Source: a virus
Virus record (IMG/VR): IMGVR_UViG_3300010368_000156
Location: 1 to 20,561 of that record
DNA: 20,561 bases
Strand: one strand, 5' to 3'
The notes under the pieces are model-generated. The model saw only the letters and a list, made by a program, of their open reading frames with translations. It was not told the DNA's origin and did no database searches. Below are positions 7,411-18,096 of this stretch, in pieces (position 1 is the first letter of the stretch; every line of letters starts with the position of its first letter). A program made the position numbers and the translations under genes.

Positions 7411-8355
7411 ATGTCTAAGATGAACTTTGACGCCCTTCGTGGACGTCTCGCAGGACTTTCTGTTGATGAGTTGACCGCAGCGGTTGACGCCAGCACCGGA
7501 AAGAAGGACTTCGGTCCTGATGAACGCTTCTGGAAACTGACCCGGGATAAACTCGGCAACGGCCAAGCGGTCATTCGCTTCCTCCCTTCTGTTGAAGGTG
7601 AGGCACCATGGATTTCCTATATGGACCATGGATTCAAAGGCCCAACCGGGAAGTGGTATATCGAAAAAAGTCGGAAGACTCTTTCGTGGGATCATGATGA
7701 TCCGGTTAGTGAATGGCTGGAAATCCAGTACAACAAGGGCGACCATGGTAAGGACATTGTGAACAAGGTTGGTGCCAAGCGCCGGACCCACTTCGTCTCT
7801 AATATCTTGATCGTTCAGGATTTCGGCAACCCCGAGAATAACGGCAAGGTCATGCTGTTCGAATATGGCAAGTCCATCATGGACATGGTCAAGGATGCAA
7901 TGCATCCAACATTCGAAGGACAGGCAACTGTCACTGCGTTTGACCCTACCGATAAGGGTGCCAACTTCAACCTGCGAGTGCGCAAGGTTGACAACTTCCC
8001 AAAATACGACAAGTCCGAATTCAGTCAGCCAGCACCGCTTGCCAACTCGATTGACGACATCGTCGCTGTTTTGGATCAGGCCCATTCTCTGAATAGCCTG
8101 ATCTCTCCCGACAAGTTCAAGTCCTATGAGGAGCTGTCACGGCACTTCAACAAGGTCATGAACCTGTCAGCCTCAATTCCTGCTGCAGCACAGCCAGCTG
8201 TTGGGAATGAACGAGCATCCTCGTTCGAGGCAACGACTCCGAACTTCTCGGATGACTCGGATGACTCACTTCCATTCGAGCCTGATGCAACTGCCGCACC
8301 AGCACCGGACGATGCTCTTGCATACTTCCGGGCAGCGGCTGCCGACAAGTCGTAG
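7411..8355 (+). CDS. 32: single-stranded DNA-binding protein gp32, zinc-site cysteines absent
   Basis: The 314-residue protein follows T4 gp32 (301 residues) throughout. It has a helical N-terminal self-association region, an OB-fold core with RFLPSVEGEAPWISYMDHGF and KWYIE, then RRTHFVSNILIVQDFGNPEN and GANFNLRVRKV, and DKFKSYEELSRHFNKVM. The C-terminal tail is acidic (DDSDDSLPFEPD) and recruits partner proteins in T4. It coats ssDNA in replication, recombination and repair. The segment corresponding to T4's zinc ligands aligns without gaps, but Cys77, Cys87 and Cys90 are replaced by Ser87, Asp97 and Ser100, while the histidine (His73 here) remains; there are no cysteines anywhere in the protein. 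Arg codons favour CGT, as expected for an abundant protein. Only a distant AAGG (7393) precedes the start, and no leader pseudoknot was identified. Confidence 0.92.
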   Translation: MSKMNFDALRGRLAGLSVDELTAAVDASTGKKDFGPDERFWKLTRDKLGNGQAVIRFLPSVEGEAPWISYMDHGFKGPTGKWYIEKSRKTLSWDHDDPVSEWLEIQYNKGDHGKDIVNKVGAKRRTHFVSNILIVQDFGNPENNGKVMLFEYGKSIMDMVKDAMHPTFEGQATVTAFDPTDKGANFNLRVRKVDNFPKYDKSEFSQPAPLANSIDDIVAVLDQAHSLNSLISPDKFKSYEELSRHFNKVMNLSASIPAAAQPAVGNERASSFEATTPNFSDDSDDSLPFEPDATAAPAPDDALAYFRAAAADKS

Positions 8356-9413: not shown

Positions 9414-9598
9414 CCCTCTCCTATAACACGCTAGAGAACTTCTATCGTACTCAGTTCGCCTTGATGCACCATCACCAATGGAGGCTCGATGAACAAAATG
9501 CGATGGTTCCATGGGAAAGGGAAATCATGCTGGCCATGCTAGAGCAGCACATCGAGGAAGAGAAAGCCAAGATGAAAGAACAGGGAATTAAGGTCTAA
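9407..9598 (+). CDS. -1 frame extension of gp26 (fusion C-terminus, 63 aa)
   Basis: Read in the -1 frame from 9407, the sequence encodes RIALSYNTLENFYRTQFALM, then HHHQWRLDEQNAMVPWEREI and an acidic coiled-coil-like end (LEQHIEEEKAKMKEQGIKV), stopping at TAA 9596-9598. There is no start codon with a ribosome-binding site: ATG 9464 and ATG 9503 have none. The fill of aromatic residues and the PWER segment look like genuine protein, and resemble C-terminal extensions of tail assembly chaperones that contact the tape measure protein. It is most simply made as a fusion with gp26. The stop overlaps the next gene as TAATG. Confidence 0.65.
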   Translation, partial: RIALSYNTLENFYRTQFALMHHHQWRLDEQNAMVPWEREIMLAMLEQHIEEEKAKMKEQGIKV

Positions 9599-10419
9599 TG
9601 CAATTCGAAGACTTCATGGCTCTCATCAGTGAGAATGTCAGGCCTAATTCTCTGTACCACTACACCCCGCAGTGGGCGAGCATGCTGAATGACAATGACA
9701 TCATTATGTCAAGGCTTGTGGACAGTGAAGAGATTGCGACCGTACAGAAGGCCGTCCCTAAACTGGACAGATCATATCGGTATTACCTATCAACCGGTCG
9801 ATCAATCCGCAACTCATATACCGAAGCCGACATCAAGAACCAATACAATCCAATCGTGGTTGTGTTTGAGCTTGACCGGAACAAACTGGCCGCAGATTTC
9901 AAGATCATCCCGGTTGACTATCAGGCATCTACCCTTGATCCTGATGGCGGTTCTAATGAGTTCCGTCACCGGGGTAGCAGTGAGACCGAAGACCGGGTGA
10001 TGTCAAAGAAGCAGAATGTCCCACTGTCAAAGTATCTCGTTGCGGTGCATGCTCTGGTCAAGGGTGAGACGCCAGATGCCTATCAGTATGTCCGGAAGAT
10101 GATCGCACATTACGAGGACATCATTCGCAGGATCGAGTCGGGTGAAACTGTCATGCAGCCAGCGCAGTCCAACATATATGATGCATCACCATACGTCCTC
10201 AAAGACGTACAGTTCAAGCTCAAGCAGGCGCATGAGCGTATCGCCCAGATCAGGAACAACATGACCGAGGGTGAGTCCCGCTTTCGTGCCATGGCCGAAG
10301 AGGCTGATGAGAAGATTCCATTCTGGATATACTCAAACCAACACGCCTTCATGTCCGCACGCTGGGCAGAAGCCGAGCAGGCCAATCCAGCGATGTGGGA
10401 AGATGACGATGAACTTTAA
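9598..10419 (+). CDS. tandem paralog A: predicted capsid-targeted ART-like protein (273 aa)
   Basis: First of seven related genes; ATG 9598 shares a base with the previous TAA. Features in order: N-terminal MQFEDFMALISE, a capsid-targeting-like peptide with a possible prohead-protease site after Glu12; SLYH (His21); YYLSTGRS (62-69) in place of the usual S-F-A-R-S; VVVFELDRNKLAADFKIIPVDY (87-108); SETEDR (128-133); YLVAVHAL; a charged helical middle region (about 160-235); then IPFWIYSNQHAF, ARWAEAEQANP and the acidic tail WEDDDEL. The His, Ser/Arg and Glu motifs have the order seen in ADP-ribosyltransferase-like folds (inference, unverified). It is the most diverged copy, with Asp replacing the second Glu of EER. 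Confidence 0.75.
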   Translation: MQFEDFMALISENVRPNSLYHYTPQWASMLNDNDIIMSRLVDSEEIATVQKAVPKLDRSYRYYLSTGRSIRNSYTEADIKNQYNPIVVVFELDRNKLAADFKIIPVDYQASTLDPDGGSNEFRHRGSSETEDRVMSKKQNVPLSKYLVAVHALVKGETPDAYQYVRKMIAHYEDIIRRIESGETVMQPAQSNIYDASPYVLKDVQFKLKQAHERIAQIRNNMTEGESRFRAMAEEADEKIPFWIYSNQHAFMSARWAEAEQANPAMWEDDDEL

Positions 10420-11161
10420 CGAATTCGACAAGCTCCTAACAGAGGCCGTCCGGAAGCAGAAGCTGTATCACAGCTCACCCAGCTGGCGCAATATCCTTGA
10501 GGACGGGGAGCTTACATCATCCGAGATGGGCTGGACAGAACGTGTTGTGGTCAAGAAGGCCGGGATCAGCACGGAACGATATGGTGACCGCTACATTTCA
10601 TTTGCCCGGTCACCCGGCAGCTCATTCATCAAGATGCAACAGAGCGATCTTGTTGTGGTGTTTGAGTTCGATGCCGAATACCTGCGCCGGAAGTACAAGA
10701 TCGTACCGGTTGACTGGCTACATTCCAGCGGCTCTACCCATGGCCGGGAGAGGGGACACAGTGAGATGGAGGAACGCCTGATCACATCCAAGACCGAGAT
10801 ACAATTGGCGCCGGTGTTCACAGGCATGCATGTATTATGGACAGGCCTTGGGGAGATGACCCGGGACATGGAACAATACCAATACACCATCAGTCAGATC
10901 AGGGCGATGGCGACTGATCCGGACACAAACTCTGTCCGGAACGAGCTACGATCTCGGAGACTGGCCGAGGCTGAGCGAGAGCTTGCCTATATCCGGACCA
11001 AGATCGATAATGTCTATGACGATCTTCTGAAACGCACTGCCGAGTTCCCGAATGTCCCGGTATGGATGTACTCCAATCGGAAATCATTCGATCAGGCACG
11101 CTGGGCCGAGGCCCAACAGATCAACACCCGCCTAGAGGACCCGCATGATGAAGACGCTTAA
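10409..11161 (+). CDS. tandem paralog B: predicted capsid-targeted ART-like protein (250 aa)
   Basis: ATG 10409 is preferred to in-frame ATG 10403 because GGGAAG (10397-10402) is then 6 bases away. The gene begins inside the acidic tail codons of paralog A. It has the N-terminal peptide MNFNEFDKLLTE|A (possible cleavage after Glu12), KLYH (His21), RYISFARS (61-68), VVVFEFDAEYLRRKYKIVPV then DW (82-103), HSEMEERLI (117-125), MHVLW, a helical charged region (150-212) and the cap VPVWMYSNRKSF, ARWAEAQQIN, ending DPHDEDA. It keeps every conserved position of the array and is a good reference copy. Expected to be made late, packaged and delivered with the DNA if the targeting reading is right. Confidence 0.78.
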   Translation: MNFNEFDKLLTEAVRKQKLYHSSPSWRNILEDGELTSSEMGWTERVVVKKAGISTERYGDRYISFARSPGSSFIKMQQSDLVVVFEFDAEYLRRKYKIVPVDWLHSSGSTHGRERGHSEMEERLITSKTEIQLAPVFTGMHVLWTGLGEMTRDMEQYQYTISQIRAMATDPDTNSVRNELRSRRLAEAERELAYIRTKIDNVYDDLLKRTAEFPNVPVWMYSNRKSFDQARWAEAQQINTRLEDPHDEDA

Positions 11162-11975
11162 GGCATTCATAAGGGACTTGACAGAACGTGTTGGTCCCAA
11201 TTCTCTATACCATATGTCCAAGAGACCATGGGCATTGCTATCCTCCGGGGTGTTCGAGCTGACAAAGGTGGACATCACCCAAACCGAGAAGCGGGTTGTG
11301 AAGAAGGCCCGTGATATCAACTTCGATCCGGCGAAGCCCATCTATTACATGTCCATGGCCCGGACCATCAACTCATCCTTCACACAGGAATGGCTCAGCA
11401 ATGGCTCACGGTATACCGGTGTTGTGTTTGAACTGGATGCCGAGCGCCTTCGAAACCATTACAAGATTGTACCGGTCGATTACTTCTGGGCCGAGCCCGC
11501 TCACAGTTCATTCTCCCGTCCGGGTGGATATAGTGAGCAGGAAGAGCGGCTTCTGTCCAAGGATGACAGGGTGCCCATCAAATATATCAAGGCCGTTCAC
11601 ATCTATAGCAAGAGCAAGCACCGTGATCCAATCGAGAATGATTTGTTCGCCAAGAAGGTTGCGGGTTATGAGAGGCTGATCGACCGTATTGAGGCTGGCG
11701 AGAAAGTCGTGAAGTCCGGCCTGAATACCGAGAGAGTTGTGTACTGGACGCTTGAGAAGGCACAGGAGATGCTCGACCGTACCGTTGCCAATGGCGAGGC
11801 CAACCGGAACTATGAGCACTATGAAGAGGATCAGGCCCGAAAGTATGCGGCATCAGGCAAGTACGATGTGCCATTCTATCTGTATCACAACCGAGCAGCA
11901 TTCAATGCCGGGCGATGGGCCGAGGCCGAGCAACTAAACCCAGACTTTAGGGACGATGACGATGAAGAGGCTTAG
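11145..11975 (+). CDS. tandem paralog C: predicted capsid-targeted ART-like protein (276 aa)
   Basis: The start is ATGATG at 11145/11148, after GAGGA (11135-11139), overlapping the end of paralog B by 14-17 bases. The N-terminus MMKTLKAFIRDLTER departs from the others: the usual Glu is Asp11, but L-T-E at 12-14 could still be cut. Then SLYH (His23), YYMSMARTINSS (67-78), VVFELDAERLRNHYKIVPVD (93-112), YSEQEERLL (129-137), AVHIYSK, a long helical middle (160-235), VPFYLYHNRAAF and GRWAEAEQLNPDF with tail RDDDDEEA. It has an insertion of about ten residues between the SMART region and the VVFELD strand compared with paralog B. Same predicted role as its neighbours. Confidence 0.77.
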   Translation: MMKTLKAFIRDLTERVGPNSLYHMSKRPWALLSSGVFELTKVDITQTEKRVVKKARDINFDPAKPIYYMSMARTINSSFTQEWLSNGSRYTGVVFELDAERLRNHYKIVPVDYFWAEPAHSSFSRPGGYSEQEERLLSKDDRVPIKYIKAVHIYSKSKHRDPIENDLFAKKVAGYERLIDRIEAGEKVVKSGLNTERVVYWTLEKAQEMLDRTVANGEANRNYEHYEEDQARKYAASGKYDVPFYLYHNRAAFNAGRWAEAEQLNPDFRDDDDEEA

Positions 11976-12576
11976 AACATTCATTACCGAGGCCGTGAGG
12001 TCTGCCAAGCTCTATCATGTCACTGAGTTCGGGACATCGATTATCCGGGCTGGCTATATCACCATCGCCCATCTAGACGAGACATCGGATGAGTCTCTGA
12101 ACAAGTCAATCTCAAAGCGTAGTGTCAAGTCAGCGCCGGATGTTGGTCACATCTCATTCACCCGATCCATCGGCGGCCACTACACCAACTCTGTCATTAA
12201 CTGGGCGGCTGTGGTCTGGGCATTCGAGTTCGATGCTGCCAAGCTCAAGTCAAAGTATCAGGTCAAGCCCGTGGACTTCTTTAAGGGTGGCCTGCGCAAG
12301 TTCGGTGAGGATGAGCAGGAAGAGCGGTTGGTCTCGAAGGATCACAGCATGCCTATCGATCCATTCCTGACCGCAGTGCACATCTATATCTCCGCCGAGT
12401 CTGTTGATGATGAGGACAACCGGCCTAACATGTTGCGAGATCAGCTTGTCGGTGAGATGAAGAGCCTCAAGGTTCCGGCATACCTTTACCACACCATGGC
12501 CACATTCAAGGCCGGGAGATTTGCGGAAGCCGAGCAGATCAATCCAAGATTCTTTGATCATGATGACGAGGACTAG
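11962..12576 (+). CDS. tandem paralog D: predicted capsid-targeted ART-like protein, short form (204 aa)
   Basis: ATG 11962 is chosen over in-frame 11956 because AGGGA (11949-11953) is then 8 bases upstream. The first ten residues, MKRLRTFITE, align without gaps with the T4 internal-protein targeting peptide MKTYQEFIAE (identical at M1, K2, F7, I8, E10), followed by A. Then KLYH (His19), GHISFTRS, VVWAFEFDAAKLKSKYQVKP, EDEQEERLV, AVHIYIS, VPAYLYHTMATF, GRFAEAEQINP and tail FDHDDED. It lacks most of the charged helical region present between the AVHI strand and the C-terminal cap in A, B, C, F and G, so that region is dispensable for the fold. Confidence 0.76.
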   Translation: MKRLRTFITEAVRSAKLYHVTEFGTSIIRAGYITIAHLDETSDESLNKSISKRSVKSAPDVGHISFTRSIGGHYTNSVINWAAVVWAFEFDAAKLKSKYQVKPVDFFKGGLRKFGEDEQEERLVSKDHSMPIDPFLTAVHIYISAESVDDEDNRPNMLRDQLVGEMKSLKVPAYLYHTMATFKAGRFAEAEQINPRFFDHDDED

Positions 12577-12580
12577 GCAC

Positions 12581-13210
12581 ATGAAGAGACTCAAAACATT
12601 CATGGCAGAGGCTGTTCGTACAGCCAAGCTCTATCATAGGGGCGATTGGAAGGGAATTCTGTATAGTGGCGACCTGATGACAAGTGCCATGGATGATGAC
12701 GAAATGGGTGTCATAGGAAATGATAAGCTGATCGATAAATACGGCGACAGATATGTGTCATTCGCTCGGACACTGGGCGGATCGTTCATGAAGACAAAGT
12801 TTCACCAGTTCTCATGTGTTTTGGAATTCAGCTCGGAAAGACTTCGGCGTGACTATAAGATCATTCCGGTTGATTGGATGGCCAAGTTTTCATATGATGA
12901 CGATCCCGTGCGGGCTGATGGCGTATCAGAAGAAGAGGAACGCCTCATCACGAGTGCGGAGAGTATTCCAATTGGCAAATATCTGGATGGCGTTCACATA
13001 TGGCAGCGGGACACTGACATGCCCGGTGAGATAACCACTGCAGTGGAAGCCGGTGCCGTTGCCAAGCTCGTGAGTAGATACCCCAACATCCCATTTTGGC
13101 TGTATGATGATGCGAAGACATTTGCGGCGGGTCGATGGGATACGGCGCATCAGATAAACCCGAATGTCACCGATCCACATGACGAGGACGACTATGATGA
13201 AGAGACTTAA
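12581..13210 (+). CDS. tandem paralog E: predicted capsid-targeted ART-like protein, short form (209 aa)
   Basis: ATG 12581 is 4 bases after the stop of D, the only non-overlapping junction in the array; upstream in-frame codons lie inside D. The N-terminus MKRLKTFMAE|A matches the T4-type targeting peptide, with Met in place of Ile/Leu at the usual P3 position. Then KLYH (His19), RYVSFARTLGGSF (57-69), CVLEFSSERLRRDYKIIPVDW, GVSEEEERLI (114-123), GVHIW, and a short linker replacing the helical region, then IPFWLYDDAKTF, GRWDTAHQINP and tail DPHDEDDYDEET. The acidic tail codons contain the ribosome-binding site and start of paralog F. Confidence 0.77.
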   Translation: MKRLKTFMAEAVRTAKLYHRGDWKGILYSGDLMTSAMDDDEMGVIGNDKLIDKYGDRYVSFARTLGGSFMKTKFHQFSCVLEFSSERLRRDYKIIPVDWMAKFSYDDDPVRADGVSEEEERLITSAESIPIGKYLDGVHIWQRDTDMPGEITTAVEAGAVAKLVSRYPNIPFWLYDDAKTFAAGRWDTAHQINPNVTDPHDEDDYDEET

Positions 13211-13955
13211 GACATTCATTGGCGAGGCTGTACGCAATGCCAAGCTATATCACCGCTCGGCGATGTGGCGGACCATCCTGACGAGCAACAAGCTCAAGAC
13301 CACACTGATGGGAGAGGGTGAGCGGGCAGTGGTGGCCAACCCTGATCTCATCAAAAAGCATGGCGGGCGATATGCATCCTTTGCTCGCTCGATGAGTGGT
13401 GACTTCATGGGGGCGGTCTATGCCGATGTGGTTGTGGTCCTTGAGTTTAACTCCGAGAAGTTGAGAGCCGACTATAAGCTGGTGCCGGTCGATTGGTTCA
13501 ACCGCAATGCTCTGCCCAATCAACGGGGCGGCGGGCGCAGTGAGGAAGAGGAGCGGCTGATTACGGATGATGAGTACATTCGGCTTGACAAGTATCTTGA
13601 TGGTGTTCACATTTTCATGAAGTTTGCGCTCCGGGATGTCAAGAACATTGCCTATCACCGGGCCATGATCGCCGGGCTCAAGGACGATCTTGCATCCAAT
13701 TCAACAGCCCCTGACGAGAAGCCTATCATCAGGGACAAGATCGCACAACAGGAGGCCTGGATTCGGAACATGCAGGACCGCATCTGGGATCACGACTCGA
13801 CCGTTGCCATGTATGCGGATAAGCACCCGGGCGTGCCTGTCTGGGTCTATGGCGATGAGAAGAGCTTTGCGCAAGGGCGCTGGGCCAATGCCGCCCAGAT
13901 GAACCCACACCTGTGGGACAAGGACGATGAGGACGACTATGATGAAGAGGCTTAA
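13194..13955 (+). CDS. tandem paralog F: predicted capsid-targeted ART-like protein (253 aa)
   Basis: The start is ATGATG at 13194/13197, after GAGGA (13184-13188), within the tail codons of E. Upstream in-frame starts are ignored. Residues: MMKRLKTFIGE|A targeting-like peptide, KLYH (His20), RYASFARSMSGDF (59-71), VVVLEFNSEKLRADYKLVPV then DWF (80-102), RSEEEERLI (115-123), GVHIF, a helical charged region (145-205), VPVWVYGDEKSF, GRWANAAQMNP and tail DDEDDYDEEA. It resembles E strongly from the N-terminus to GVHI, pointing to a recent duplication of this part, but carries the helical region that E lacks. Confidence 0.78.
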   Translation: MMKRLKTFIGEAVRNAKLYHRSAMWRTILTSNKLKTTLMGEGERAVVANPDLIKKHGGRYASFARSMSGDFMGAVYADVVVVLEFNSEKLRADYKLVPVDWFNRNALPNQRGGGRSEEEERLITDDEYIRLDKYLDGVHIFMKFALRDVKNIAYHRAMIAGLKDDLASNSTAPDEKPIIRDKIAQQEAWIRNMQDRIWDHDSTVAMYADKHPGVPVWVYGDEKSFAQGRWANAAQMNPHLWDKDDEDDYDEEA

Positions 13956-13956
13956 G
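13926..13956 (+). repeat. conserved F/G gene junction, repeat of 13181-13211
   Basis: The 31-base stretch here and the one at 13181-13211 (the E/F junction) agree at about 29 positions. Each encodes the acidic end DEDDYDEE(A/T) of one paralog and, in another frame, the GAGGA ribosome-binding site and ATGATGAAGAG start of the next. It marks the duplication unit as ending in the overlap. Confidence 0.7.
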
Positions 13957-14709
13957 GGCTGGCTACTGGGCGAGGGTGTTCGTACACCAAAGCTCTATCA
14001 CACATCACCTAACTGGTGGTCCAACATCCTAGAGGATGGCCTGATCAAGTCCAGTGACATGCGGAACTATGCGGATGAGCTTGCGCTCATGAAGCGGACA
14101 GGCATCGGCAACAAGTATCGCCGGTTCATCTCATTCGGTCGGAGCCTGCAAAGCTCATGGGCAAACCCCCGGGGAGGGAACAGTGACAACAGGTCAGCCG
14201 TGTCCCTTGAGTTTGATGCGAACAAGCTGCGGGCCGACTATAAGATTGTGCCGGTCGATTACTTCTCATATGAGACGACGGGCGAGGATGATGACGGCAT
14301 GGTCCATGTGCGCCATGGTCGGGGCCAAGGCGTGTCAGAGACCGAGGAGCGCCTTCTTACCAATAAGCCTGCCATCCCCATCGAGCCATACCTAACGGCT
14401 GTCCATGTGGCCATGACGGCCCGGGAACAGCACATCATGGACCAGATATGGCGAGCGAAGCGTGTGCCCAAGTGGAAATTCGCCACCGACGCCGAGATCA
14501 AGCACGCCGAGAACCTACTAGATAGCTATGAGGAAGAGCTTGGGAAGGTCTACAGCTCCATACTTGAGTTCACGAATAAATACCCCGAGGTTCCGGTGTA
14601 TGCCTATCGGAACAACAATGATTATTATAATGCGAGATGGGCAGATGCAGAGCAGATCAATCCAAAGCTAGAGAGTCACGACGATGACCGAGACGACACC
14701 GACGAATAA
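13939..14709 (+). CDS. tandem paralog G: predicted capsid-targeted ART-like protein (256 aa)
   Basis: The start is ATGATG at 13939/13942 with GAGGA at 13929-13933, in a junction nearly identical to that between E and F. N-terminal MMKRLKGWLLGE|G (possible cleavage after Glu12), KLYH (His21), RRFISFGRSLQSSW (61-74), SLEFDANKLRADYKIVPVDY (89-108), an acidic insertion GEDDDG, GVSETEERLL (131-140), AVHVAMTA, a helical region (160-215), VPVYAYRNNNDYY, ARWADAEQINP and tail SHDDDRDDTDE. SFGRS replaces SFARS. The last gene of the array; its end overlaps the membrane-protein gene by 26 bases. Confidence 0.77.
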   Translation: MMKRLKGWLLGEGVRTPKLYHTSPNWWSNILEDGLIKSSDMRNYADELALMKRTGIGNKYRRFISFGRSLQSSWANPRGGNSDNRSAVSLEFDANKLRADYKIVPVDYFSYETTGEDDDGMVHVRHGRGQGVSETEERLLTNKPAIPIEPYLTAVHVAMTAREQHIMDQIWRAKRVPKWKFATDAEIKHAENLLDSYEEELGKVYSSILEFTNKYPEVPVYAYRNNNDYYNARWADAEQINPKLESHDDDRDDTDE

Positions 14710-14974
14710 GCACGATCTCAATGAGGATGGTGTGATCGATGAGAATGAAGGCGCCGTGATCTTTCGCTGGCGCCGGACCCAGAGATACTTTGCGGTGGTC
14801 GCATTCGCTGCAATTGCCCTCAACACTACGGTGCTCATCATACTGGTGTCCATGGGTGTGATGACACCCGACATGATCAACTCATTGGGCGCACCATTGG
14901 CATGGTTCTATGGTGTGATGGGTGGCGTGATTGGCACCTTCATGGGCGGCGAGGTCTTTATCAACCGGCCCTAG
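14684..14974 (+). CDS. small membrane protein with EF-hand-like loop (96 aa)
   Basis: ATG 14684 lies within the end of paralog G. Residues 11-22 read DLNEDGVIDENE, which has Asp, Asn, Asp, Gly, Ile, Asp and Glu at positions 1, 3, 5, 6, 8, 9 and 12 of a canonical calcium-binding EF-hand loop. Two hydrophobic segments follow, about 36-60 (FAVVAFAAIALNTTVLIILV and on) and about 70-92 (PLAWFYGVMGGVIGTFMGG). A small two-helix membrane protein in a late operon might be a holin, but no family match is recognised. The tail is short (FINRP). The stop shares CTAG with the stop of the convergent tape-measure gene. Confidence 0.65.
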   Translation: MTETTPTNKHDLNEDGVIDENEGAVIFRWRRTQRYFAVVAFAAIALNTTVLIILVSMGVMTPDMINSLGAPLAWFYGVMGGVIGTFMGGEVFINRP

Positions 14975-16575
14975 TTTCTAAATGGTCTCGCTGGGTTGGT
15001 TGTGCTGACCTGCCGGTTGATGAATGCATTGGTCTGGGTGCTTGAGGTGACACTGGTGTTCGATGGTGCCGAGATAACCATAGACGCCGATACCTGAGCC
15101 GCTGCTTGTTGGGCGGTCTCTCTTGCATTTGTAGAAATGGTCTCGCCCGGACGAGCCGATGCACCTGACGGTATGATACCGCCTGCGGCGCCCTGATCCG
15201 CCAGAGTGTTGGGTCCATTTAATGCATCAGCAATCGTGGCTATTGCACCGGCAGAGCCGGGTAATAGAGCGGCAGTAGTGCCAGCCGCAAGGTTTCCTGC
15301 GCCTTGAAGCATGTTGCCGAGAATTTCGCCGGGGTTCAGGCGGCGTGCCCATAGGATGGCATCATCAAGGAATGAAACCATTCCGGAGAATGCACCGGTG
15401 ATCATGGACCAGAAACTATCCCATGCACCCACAAGCATATCCCATACTTCGCCAATACCCTCAACAGGATTCTCCCCAAAGAACCCTCCGAACATTCTGA
15501 GTGCGGCCTCCACAAAATCATAGAACCAGTTGGACAATCCAATAACCCAGTCCTCTAGCCATTGAGCGGCGCCATTGATGGCCTCTCGCACAGCCAGCGA
15601 TGCCTCCTCAGAGAAGCCCATCATCCTCATAACCTTCTCAACGATCCAACCAAAAAATTCCCCGAGATCAGTAATGAGCGTAAGGAACCCATTGACGGCA
15701 CCTCGGAAGAATGCCACAAACACAGAGATTGCGTCCGATCCTTGCTGGCCAGCTTCCGTAAAGGCGGCGGTCATTCCATCCCAGATCGCAATCACGAGTG
15801 TGATGAACCACGCAAACTTCCCAAGGGAACGGAACACCGCCCCCAGCAGTTTGCCCAGAAACTCTTTGAACGGAATGATAGCCTTGACAATGTCAACAAA
15901 GAATTTTGATATCTTCCCAATCCACTTAAAGATGAACTTGATGCCGTCAAATAGCATCCGCCTCGAAGACTTGGCCGGGGTAAGCCAATTACCAAGGCGG
16001 GCAATGAATCTGGTGATGGGCGAGAATAGATTGGTCCGGAGTGTTTTGAACCATTTCGAATCAAAGGCCGCCCGTATCGCATTATTGATCATACTTGGGA
16101 TACCGAACATCATGGTATTAATCAATGAGCCGACTTTCTTCGCAAACCCAATTGTATTCAATGAAACAAAGAAGCCTGTGACCATCTCAATGGTCTTTGT
16201 CATGGCGTCATCAAGGTCTGTCCGCATTCTACTGGCAGCCAATGCAACACCCATGACAATGGCGCCTGCTGCAGCAGCCACGCCCATAGCCGCAAGCAGA
16301 CCATCTAGGATAAGACCGTTCTTCCTCTTCTCGCCATCCTTCATACCCTTGGCTTCCTTGCGGCGCTCGGCAGCGGCTAGTGCCTGCTGTTGAAGTTCGA
16401 GCAATCTGGCACCCTCACTAGCGGCCATCAGATCGAGTAGTGCTTTCATGCGTTCGGCGAGAATTTTAGTAAATTCTTCATTCTCAGTAGTTCGGTCCAA
16501 TGCCTTGGTGGATGTCTCATTGAGGATTTTGAGTTCCGCAACCACAGCACCCATGAAGTCGTTATTGCCAGCCAT
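14971..16575 (-). CDS. tail tape-measure-like protein (534 aa), gp29-like role
   Basis: The 534-residue protein begins with a charged coiled-coil-like region (about 1-85, with MKALLDLMAASEGARLLELQ), a small hydrophobic Ala/Gly/Val helix (about 88-112), then a long stretch of amphipathic and hydrophobic segments rich in Phe, Trp and Gly (115-430), and ends in a Ser/Thr/Asn/Ala-rich low-complexity tail. That layout is typical of phage tape-measure proteins, which set tail length and sit inside the tube; T4's gp29 has 590 residues. It follows the tube-fold gene with one base between, and GAGGA precedes the start. Sequence identity to gp29 cannot be judged here, so the role is inferred from architecture and position. 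Confidence 0.65.
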   Translation of the reverse strand: MAGNNDFMGAVVAELKILNETSTKALDRTTENEEFTKILAERMKALLDLMAASEGARLLELQQQALAAAERRKEAKGMKDGEKRKNGLILDGLLAAMGVAAAAGAIVMGVALAASRMRTDLDDAMTKTIEMVTGFFVSLNTIGFAKKVGSLINTMMFGIPSMINNAIRAAFDSKWFKTLRTNLFSPITRFIARLGNWLTPAKSSRRMLFDGIKFIFKWIGKISKFFVDIVKAIIPFKEFLGKLLGAVFRSLGKFAWFITLVIAIWDGMTAAFTEAGQQGSDAISVFVAFFRGAVNGFLTLITDLGEFFGWIVEKVMRMMGFSEEASLAVREAINGAAQWLEDWVIGLSNWFYDFVEAALRMFGGFFGENPVEGIGEVWDMLVGAWDSFWSMITGAFSGMVSFLDDAILWARRLNPGEILGNMLQGAGNLAAGTTAALLPGSAGAIATIADALNGPNTLADQGAAGGIIPSGASARPGETISTNARETAQQAAAQVSASMVISAPSNTSVTSSTQTNAFINRQVSTTNPARPFRN

Positions 16576-16576
16576 A

Positions 16577-17197
16577 TTAGAATAGTCCTCGGGTTAGGTC
16601 ACGAATGACATTGGATGGGAAGCTGCCACCTTGGACGGCTCGCAGTAGGTCAATACCACCAGATAGCAGGGCACTCTCCATGACCTCATAGTCCTCATAC
16701 TCGATCTGGATTTGTATCTCGACCACCGAGTTTTCGGAGTTGTCGCTTAGATCGATCTGGGTCTTGACCTTCGGGAAGGCACCACGCAGCTTGACAATGT
16801 ATGTGGGCACACCGCTATCATTGGTGGCCATGATATAGATGTCCCGGACCAAGTCCTTACGGTAGGCCACTGCATAGGTCACCGGATCAACTGCCGAGTT
16901 CATCCATCGGTCGAAGTATCGGCTCACGGTATGGTCATTGGACTCGGTGAAGGCCATGTCAACCGGGGTATTGATGTATCCGGTCGGTGTCTCGAAGCTC
17001 TTCATGTTCACTCGACGGGGAACGGTGGTGATGCTGCGGCCCGGCAAGGTTGCCCGCCGACACAGGACATCCATGGAGATGGCATCCTCGCCAACCGACA
17101 TGGTGGGCAACAGGATGCGATACTTGTTGAGCTTGGCGATGCCACCCTTGGCAGCAATGATGGTATGAGCAAAGTCAGGTCCGATGAAGTTTACCAT
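16577..17197 (-). CDS. tail-tube-fold protein (gp19/gp54-like, 206 aa)
   Basis: The 206 residues follow the pattern of contractile-tail tube proteins such as T4 gp19 (163 residues): an N-terminal NKYRILLPTMSV strand, CRRATLPGRSITTVPRRVNM, ETPTGYINTPVDMAFTESND followed by a helix (VSRYFDRWMNSAV), and an ending with LRGAFPKVKTQIDLSDNSEN and VEIQIQIEYEDYE. It could be the main tube protein, or the tube-initiating baseplate protein gp54, which shares the fold in distant T4-like phages. The small size favours a gp19-like fold, while its place beside the tape measure and near baseplate genes favours an initiator. Gaps of 6 and 1 bases to its neighbours show an operon with gp4 first. Confidence 0.7.
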   Translation of the reverse strand: MVNFIGPDFAHTIIAAKGGIAKLNKYRILLPTMSVGEDAISMDVLCRRATLPGRSITTVPRRVNMKSFETPTGYINTPVDMAFTESNDHTVSRYFDRWMNSAVDPVTYAVAYRKDLVRDIYIMATNDSGVPTYIVKLRGAFPKVKTQIDLSDNSENSVVEIQIQIEYEDYEVMESALLSGGIDLLRAVQGGSFPSNVIRDLTRGLF

Positions 17198-17203
17198 GGC
17201 GTG

Positions 17204-17653
17204 TTATAGTGTCCTCGTTACGAGTGTGGCAAGTTCCTCGGGTAGCACCTCAATGATGCGGCCTTTGATGCGGTTCTTTGAATAGAATTTCAGGGCAGGC
17301 TTGGTCGAGCCATTGGCCTTGACCGCCAGCTCCATGCGCAGGAGGGCATCCTTACGATCATCCTCCTTGGGCAGGGACATGATACGGATGTACTCTTCGA
17401 CAATACGGCGGCGATGTGTGATGGATGTGAGGGACAGGACATTGATACCGAGCAGGCCACCATTGCGCACCCGGGTCACAATGAACAGAGGCACCATGTC
17501 AAGGGGCGTCATGTTACGCTCGCTGCGATCAGGTTCATAGCCGAACAGATAGGACCGGCCAAACTCAAGGGTTGCCAGCTTGGATGAAGGCGAACGCATC
17601 TTGCGTGTCACCCAGTTCTGATATGTGGCGGGTTGCCGTGGTCCATCTACCAT
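17204..17653 (-). CDS. small conserved phage protein of uncertain role (149 aa)
   Basis: The start at 17653 overlaps the end of the gp4 gene by 7 bases. The protein contains RSYLFGYEPDRSERNMTPLD, MVPLFIVTRVRNGGLLGINVLSLTSITHR and a C-terminal basic part (KFYSKNRIKGRIIEVLPEEL). The pattern Y-x-F-x-Y-x-P...LxxxDxxPLxxxxxxxxGGxxGxNxxxLxxxxR recurs in small proteins of T4-like marine phages, some of which I believe carry the label DNA end protector (gp2); I cannot confirm this. In T4, gene 2 adjoins gene 4, which agrees, but T4 gp2 is much larger (274 residues). Probably a structural or head-completion factor. Confidence 0.6.
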   Translation of the reverse strand: MVDGPRQPATYQNWVTRKMRSPSSKLATLEFGRSYLFGYEPDRSERNMTPLDMVPLFIVTRVRNGGLLGINVLSLTSITHRRRIVEEYIRIMSLPKEDDRKDALLRMELAVKANGSTKPALKFYSKNRIKGRIIEVLPEELATLVTRTL

Positions 17654-18096
17654 TTCAGTATCCCCATCTTCTTTAGGACGTGTTCATCCCAGATTGCGAA
17701 CTCATATCCGGCCTTCTTTGCATAGGCCTCGGCTGCTTCCCATTTACAGCTGTTGGTGACATAGGTCATGCACTCTTCGATATAATACTGGCGCTTCTTG
17801 CCCTTCTTAACAGGTGGCCGGGTCTGCTTGGATGGCTTGACCTCAACCATAAGAATGGTGCCGTCCGCAAACTTGATTGTCAGGTCCATGAAGTAACGGC
17901 GCTGCTTCTTCTTGCCGCTATCATAGTATGGGATGACCGTCTCCTCTGCCACCCACTCGACTACCTTGTCCTGACGCTCACACCAAAGGAAACATGCACG
18001 CTCCCACCCAGACCTATACACGACATCATCAGGATTGCCCATGTACTTGGCAGGCTTCTTTAATTTATATTTGCCCTTGTATGTGCGAAAAGCCAT
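17647..18096 (-). CDS. 4: head completion protein gp4 (endonuclease-like)
   Basis: At 149 residues it matches the length of T4 gp4 (150). It has RTYKGKYKLKKPAKYMGNPD, a YRSGWERACFLWCE helix with Glu32, then VEWVAEETVIPYY, YFMDLTIKF with Asp71 and MVEVKPSKQT with E85-V-K87. The E...D...ExK arrangement is the PD-(D/E)xK nuclease core. The following KRQYYIEECMTYVTNSCKWE and GYEFAIWDEHVLKKMG complete the family pattern. In T4, gp4 completes filled heads so that tails can attach. It is the first gene of the leftward late operon, 24 bases from the predicted transcription start, with GAGGA in front of the ATG. Confidence 0.85.
   Translation of the reverse strand: MAFRTYKGKYKLKKPAKYMGNPDDVVYRSGWERACFLWCERQDKVVEWVAEETVIPYYDSGKKKQRRYFMDLTIKFADGTILMVEVKPSKQTRPPVKKGKKRQYYIEECMTYVTNSCKWEAAEAYAKKAGYEFAIWDEHVLKKMGILKW

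What the first reader, a model, noticed from the sequence alone, without database searches (positions are those of the whole stretch)
9598..14010. Array proteins carry T4 internal-protein-like capsid targeting peptides and prohead-protease sites
T4 internal proteins begin with MKTYQEFIAE, which directs them into the prohead and is removed by protease gp21 after (L/I)-x-E. Here D begins MKRLRTFITE|A, E MKRLKTFMAE|A, F MMKRLKTFIGE|A, B MNFNEFDKLLTE|A, G MMKRLKGWLLGE|G, A MQFEDFMALISE|N; C has only the weaker LTE|R. Cleavage would fall just before the conserved LYH. This predicts that up to seven different proteins are packaged with the DNA and injected into the host.
Basis: partly seen in the sequence, partly recalled or inferred. 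Interest (0 to 1): 0.9.

Follow-up and report, generated by a model that had tools for sequence, protein, structure and literature searches.

The report
Seven capsid-tagged phage ADP-ribosyltransferase-like proteins
A phage of the T4 group carries a row of seven related genes for probable ADP-ribosyltransferase enzymes, each starting with a short removable tag like the one T4 uses to load proteins into its head, so this phage probably injects a cocktail of seven host-modifying enzymes together with its DNA.

Summary
The seven N-terminal peptides are really there. All seven read [L/I/M]-x-E, ending at residue 10-13 and exactly 6 residues before an invariant LYH; T4 ipII/ipIII begin MKTYQEFIAE|A. 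The motif alone is weak evidence: 6% of T4-group proteins have it. Comparison is stronger. (1) Homologues in phages without T4-type heads lack it, some starting directly at LYH; leader and gp21-type protease (PF03420) agree in 10 of 10 phages scored. (2) In Alishewanella phage Slickus01 the same leader sits on five homologues and six other proteins, one an ART-PolyVal enzyme. (3) Leaders match each phage's inferred capsid-protein maturation site. (4) AlphaFold leaves the leader disordered beside a well-folded core. The core matches no family model, but a family member's best PDB fold matches are DarT and Tpt1/KptA (top E 0.002-0.06), and H, S-x-x-R and E-x-E are conserved in all seven. Most likely: seven paralogous ADP-ribosyltransferase-like enzymes, targeted to the prohead, trimmed by its protease and injected. 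Packaging, cleavage, injection and activity are untested; the window holds no head-protease or capsid gene, so its protease specificity is inferred from relatives. The array runs to 14709.

The parts
9598..10419 (+). gene A, 273 aa; predicted leader 9598-9633 (MQFEDFMALISE), mature part from N13
10409..11161 (+). gene B, 250 aa; predicted leader 10409-10444 (MNFNEFDKLLTE)
   Evidence: overlaps A by 11 nt
11148..11975 (+). gene C, 275 aa; predicted leader 11148-11186 (MKTLKAFIRDLTE), P1' is Arg
   Evidence: overlaps B by 14 nt
11962..12576 (+). gene D, 204 aa, lacks the long middle insert; predicted leader 11962-11991 (MKRLRTFITE)
   Evidence: gapless match to T4 CTS
12581..13210 (+). gene E, 209 aa, lacks the long middle insert; predicted leader 12581-12610 (MKRLKTFMAE; M at P3)
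   Evidence: modelled by AlphaFold2: much of the core above pLDDT 80, residues 1-13 below 50
13197..13955 (+). gene F, 252 aa (253 if started at 13194); predicted leader 13197-13226 (MKRLKTFIGE)
13942..14709 (+). gene G, 255 aa (256 if started at 13939); predicted leader 13942-13974 (MKRLKGWLLGE)
   Evidence: extends past the 14010 given in the finding
7411..8355 (+). gp32-type single-strand DNA-binding protein: places the phage in the T4 group
   Evidence: phrog_224 E=5e-83; best listed named relatives are a pelagiphage and Synechococcus phages (two checked: Kyanoviridae), about 40% identity
8694..9413 (+). baseplate hub protein upstream of the array
   Evidence: phrog_150 E=2e-52
14971..18096 (-). 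convergent structural block: tape-measure-like, tail tube, DNA end protector (gp2-like), head closure (gp4/50-like)
   Evidence: phrog_1535, 45, 429, 218

Best explanation
A-G are seven paralogous enzymes, most likely DarT/Tpt1-like members of the ADP-ribosyltransferase (ART) superfamily. Each begins with a 10-13 residue capsid-targeting sequence of the T4 type. During head assembly the leader binds the scaffold core and carries the protein into the prohead. A gp21-type (S77) prohead protease then cuts after hydrophobic-x-E and releases the mature enzyme, which starts 6 residues before LYH. It stays in the head with the DNA and is injected at infection, where the seven variants ADP-ribosylate host targets (nucleic acid or protein) or disarm defences before phage genes are expressed. 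Shown here: leader anatomy and its covariation with T4-type heads, sharing of the leader by unrelated proteins in a relative, match to inferred capsid maturation sites, and an ART-like fold and conserved residues. Inferred: packaging, cleavage in this phage, injection, catalysis and targets.
For: Leader and spacing conserved in all seven. T4 CTS read directly; in T4, residues 4 and 7 target and 8 and 10 are needed for processing (PMC9026906). Homologues in JA13 and Sen-NF start at LYH/LFH. S77 protease found in K566, Mel-JY01, SCTP-2, LR756508, Slickus01 and G024 (leader present), not in JA13, Lu11, HRDY3, RHph_N46 (no xE leader); Fisher p=0.005, phylogeny ignored. A profile from five Slickus01 leaders finds six more N-termini on other bodies, with a clear gap to the rest; one is ART-PolyVal PF18760, E=4e-11. 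Inferred capsid sites match leader sites in Slickus01, K566, G024, Mel-JY01, SCTP-2; Kyanoviridae ILTE|T and FLGE|I. G024 homologues abut terminase and portal. Closest gp32 relative L016 has leader MFEDLLALITE|S on a zeta-toxin-like kinase. AlphaFold: leader disordered, core confident. Foldseek on a family member: the first 23 of 119 matches are DarT or Tpt1/KptA. DarT1 LFHFT aligns with LYHxT.
Against: The window has no prohead protease, scaffold or capsid gene, so its own protease specificity is inferred from relatives. The bare motif occurs in 6% of N-termini. E has M at P3 and C has Arg at P1'. The capsid sites used for comparison are themselves inferred by alignment with T4 gp23, not measured. 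Fold evidence is moderate: no PDB match below E=0.001, TM 0.33-0.49 for the best; the window protein's own model gives weaker, mixed hits; a profile comparison with the ART-PolyVal neighbour failed. The array lies beside tail rather than capsid genes. No virion proteome of a family member was found.
Confidence: 0.74

Rival explanations
1. The proteins are ART-like host-takeover or anti-defence enzymes made inside the infected cell and not packaged; the N-terminal helix is a structural or regulatory element whose xE motif is coincidental.
For: The motif is common by chance (6%); homologues in K566 and Mel-JY01 lie among replication or metabolism genes rather than capsid genes; leaderless homologues exist.
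Against: Sharing of the leader by other proteins in Slickus01, concordance with S77 protease and match with inferred capsid sites are not expected; T4 ipII and ipIII themselves lie beside the lysozyme gene, away from the capsid genes.
Confidence: 0.14
2. The leaders do target the prohead, but the cargo is not an active ART: it is a DNA-associated or structural internal protein, or a degenerate ART fold serving as an inhibitor (as T4 IPI inhibits a restriction enzyme).
For: No sequence-family match above cut-off; T4 internal proteins include non-enzymes (PMC9026906).
Against: H, S-x-x-R and E-x-E are invariant over seven paralogues and very distant homologues; mature proteins are acidic (pI 4.6-6.4), unlike the basic T4 internal proteins; DarT/Tpt1-like fold.
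Confidence: 0.1
3. The leader is a binding tag for some other phage structure (baseplate or an infection compartment), independent of the prohead protease.
For: Array is next to tail genes; Lu11, which lacks a detectable S77 protease and Gp23, has its own shared leader MKIQLAxA on at least eight proteins including three homologues.
Against: The end motif coincides with the inferred capsid-protein cut site in each T4-type phage checked.
Confidence: 0.02

Closest known systems
T4 internal proteins IPI, IPII, IPIII with capsid-targeting sequence (Mullaney and Black 1996)
   Same: 10-13 residue N-terminal leader ending in hydrophobic-x-E, mostly before a small residue; D, E, F align without gaps to MKTYQEFIAE|A
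   Different: cargo is a larger, acidic, ART-like enzyme rather than a small basic protein; seven tandem paralogues
T4 Alt (head-packaged ADP-ribosyltransferase)
   Same: predicted head-packaged, leader-trimmed, injected ADP-ribosyltransferase
   Different: no family-model match to Alt found; Alt is of the R-S-E clade (PMC9503650), the array core is nearest DarT/Tpt1 in fold; Alt is a single gene, here seven proteins of 22-31 kDa
Head-packaged phage ARTs and polyvalent-protein ARTs (Iyer et al. 2022, PMC9503650)
   Same: general proposal that myovirus ARTs are packaged and delivered with DNA; a leader-bearing ART-PolyVal neighbour exists in Slickus01
   Different: their evidence is fusions and gene neighbourhood; a targeting leader and this family are not mentioned in the sections read
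DarT / Tpt1 (KptA) ART families
   Same: fold of a family member matches these best; YHxT motif aligns with DarT1
   Different: no match to any curated family model; no DarG-like partner recognised in the window; its own S-x-x-R and E-x-E arrangement

Membership tests
T4-type capsid-targeting-sequence (CTS) cargo | short N-terminal leader ending in the phage prohead protease motif | tested here: met
   7/7 [LIM]xE at residue 10-13; matches inferred capsid maturation sites of relatives; own protease not in window
T4-type capsid-targeting-sequence (CTS) cargo | leader is a portable module independent of the cargo | tested here: met
   absent in leaderless homologues; shared by other proteins in Slickus01
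T4-type capsid-targeting-sequence (CTS) cargo | phage encodes gp21-type (S77) protease and Gp23-type capsid | tested here: inconclusive
   window is a 20.5-kb fragment without a detected S77 gene; gp32 relatives G013, HTVC008M, S-RIM2 have both
T4-type capsid-targeting-sequence (CTS) cargo | protein present in virion with leader removed; injected | not testable with these tools
   needs virion proteomics
ADP-ribosyltransferase superfamily | ART fold | tested here: met
   Foldseek: first 23 of 119 PDB matches are DarT or Tpt1/KptA, best E=2.4e-3, prob 1.00; weaker list with several ARTs for the window protein. Moderate strength
ADP-ribosyltransferase superfamily | conserved NAD-binding and catalytic residues | tested here: met
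   H, S-x-x-R, E-x-E invariant in 26 members; DarT1 LFHFT aligned with LYHxT; residue roles inferred
ADP-ribosyltransferase superfamily | NAD+-dependent transferase activity | not testable with these tools
   biochemistry needed
DarT (DNA thymidine ADP-ribosyltransferase) | match to a curated family model | tested here: not met
   no significant Pfam, NCBIfam or PADLOC match
T4 Alt/ModA/ModB family | match to a curated family model | tested here: not met
   no significant PHROG or Pfam match

The most novel reading that the evidence does not exclude
A previously unannotated DarT/Tpt1-like ART family is a recurrent CTS-tagged cargo of several T4-group phages. This phage loads seven different members into its heads, giving a pre-made cocktail of ADP-ribosylating enzymes, possibly acting on host DNA or RNA, that works before any phage gene is expressed. 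Prohead leaders are attached to different enzyme families as interchangeable address labels.
Probability: 0.5. Interest if true: 0.78.

Novelty: new variant of a known kind. Interest (0 to 1): 0.64.

Why it matters
T4's capsid-targeting leader is known mainly from one phage. This suggests a way to read, from sequence alone, which proteins a T4-group phage carries in its head: find short leaders ending in the motif that matches the phage's own capsid cleavage site. It points to a family of unannotated enzymes that would act in the first moments of infection, when restriction and other defences must be beaten, and to Slickus01 and K566, sequenced phage isolates in which one virion proteomics run would test the idea.

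Tried and rejected
Motif frequency alone as evidence: rejected, 6% background and no N-terminal enrichment genome-wide. Array next to gp32 in relatives: no family member found in 49 gp32-related loci. Direct tblastn of array protein F against phage genomes found nothing; C and intermediate homologues worked. Family libraries gave no significant match. Profile comparison with the Slickus01 ART-PolyVal protein failed. C-terminal processing as in Alt: considered, no hydrophobic-x-E seen near the acidic tails. Homologues of the L016 zeta-like kinase in phages: matches start inside the domain, so leaders could not be compared.

Full report
WHAT IS THERE. The window is a 20.5-kb virus fragment of a T4-group phage: gp32-type SSB, baseplate hub, tail tube, tube cap, head closure and DNA end protector are recognised. 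Its gp32 matches over two thousand phage records; the best-ranked listed hits are a pelagiphage and Synechococcus phages at about 40% identity, of which the two checked are Kyanoviridae. Between the hub gene and the convergent structural block lie seven tandem genes A-G, 9598-14709; each of B-G starts within the end of the previous gene or 4 nt after it. They are paralogues, roughly 30-50% identical, and match no Pfam, PHROG, NCBIfam or PADLOC family significantly.

THE LEADER. All seven begin with 10-13 residues ending in [L/I/M]-x-E, then exactly six residues, then LYH. T4 ipII and ipIII, read from the genome, begin MKTYQEFIAE|A. D, E and F align with this without gaps. In T4 such leaders carry proteins into the prohead core and are removed by gp21; residues 4 and 7 matter for targeting and 8 and 10 for processing (PMC9026906). 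By itself the motif is weak: 62 of 1011 T4-group proteins show it, and a stricter pattern is no commoner at N-termini than inside proteins.

COMPARATIVE TEST 1, PRESENCE AND ABSENCE. Searches found homologues of the core domain in jumbo phages JA13, Lu11, HRDY3 and SCTP-2, in Sen-NF, in Rhizobium, Vibrio, Alishewanella and Microcystis phages, and in IMG/VR contigs. In JA13 and Sen-NF the protein starts at LYH or LFH, with no leader. PF03420 (gp21-type protease) was found in K566, Mel-JY01, SCTP-2, LR756508, Slickus01 and G024, all of whose homologues have an xE leader; it was not found in JA13, Lu11, HRDY3 and RHph_N46, whose homologues do not. Gp23 was also not found in those four. Ten of ten agree (Fisher p=0.005, ignoring phylogeny; some of these phages are related).

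COMPARATIVE TEST 2, SHARED LEADER. In Slickus01 a profile made from the leaders of five homologues was scored on 189 annotated proteins. Six further proteins stood out (scores 10.4-20.7; next best 3.7; at most 0.013% of 38,437 internal windows score as high). They do not carry the array domain; one is an ART-PolyVal protein (PF18760, E=4e-11), one belongs to phrog_4301, one is beside the large terminase gene.

COMPARATIVE TEST 3, SAME CUT SITE AS THE CAPSID PROTEIN. By alignment with T4 gp23 (T4 site from established knowledge), capsid-protein maturation sites are VISE|S in Slickus01, GLNE|AV in K566, VLNE|A in G024, LISE|A in Mel-JY01 and MLKE|S in SCTP-2. The homologues' leaders in the same phages end LLEE|G (and similar), ELAE|AV, LLEE|S and ILNE|E, SLLQE|I and SLVTE|T, NLNE|S. 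In Kyanoviridae the sites are ILTE|T (S-RIM2) and FLGE|I (HTVC008M), the same tripeptides (LTE, LGE) as in array members B, C and G. These capsid sites are inferred, not measured. In G024 two homologues lie directly upstream of terminase and portal.

THE CARGO. AlphaFold2 models of E and of a G024 homologue have confident cores; the leader is below pLDDT 50. Foldseek against the PDB with the second model lists DarT and Tpt1/KptA structures in the first 23 places of 119 (best E=2.4e-3, probability 1.00, TM up to 0.49), followed by cholera toxin A chains. The window protein's own model gives weaker hits, several of them ARTs. A family profile's only PDB sequence match is DarT1 (E=0.14), aligning LFHFT with LYHxT; one member weakly matches Tox-ART-HYD1 (E=0.016). 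H, S-x-x-R and E-x-E are invariant in all 26 aligned members, so all seven array copies look intact. I conclude an ART-superfamily enzyme nearest DarT/Tpt1, probability about 0.85; activity and target unknown.

CONTEXT. Head-packaged ARTs have been proposed as widespread in myoviruses from fusions and gene neighbourhood (PMC9503650). What is added here is a targeting leader, an unannotated family, and a seven-fold array.

WHAT IS NOT SHOWN. No protein was seen in a virion; the window's own protease and capsid genes are missing; injection and catalysis are inferred. A library of cellular protein models was not available for fold search.

Noticed in passing
L135 (Pseudomonas phage Lu11, JQ768459, 152001-172000): At least eight proteins of very different length share an N-terminal peptide M(K/R)I(Q/M)LA-x-A, three of them homologues of the array proteins. 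This phage has no detectable S77 protease or Gp23, so it may use a different leader for the same kind of cargo.
   Followed up: partly
L016 4783-5772: Closest gp32 relative of the window carries a zeta-toxin-like kinase (PF06414) with leader MFEDLLALITE|S, very like array A's MQFEDFMALISE|N.
   Followed up: partly
L049 217-1434; L101 (HTVC008M); L109 and L111 (S-RIM2): CTS-like leaders on other proteins of T4-group phages: a DUF6267 protein (MITFQYWNTLSE|G) and a similar-looking one in HTVC008M (MYNDLLVE|D), a P-loop protein (MIPFILKE|G), MKKFSAFLTE|A and MKSYKQFMSE|S.
   Followed up: no
window gene junctions 10403-13955: Acidic C-terminal tails (D/E-rich, codons such as GACGAGGAC) overlap or abut the next gene's start and appear to supply its Shine-Dalgarno sequence, which may partly explain why the tails are conserved.
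   Followed up: no
L064 30368-30856, 42569-45028 (Slickus01): The phage with the other large set of leader-tagged homologues also encodes a macro-domain protein and NAD-related enzymes (ribose-phosphate pyrophosphokinase, nicotinate phosphoribosyltransferase).
   Followed up: no
PV359490 (Salmonella phage Sen-NF), L003 and L005: Two homologues and the neighbouring ligase and glycosyltransferase genes are in the same order as in Dickeya phage JA13, although the record is 108 kb and said to infect Salmonella.
   Followed up: no
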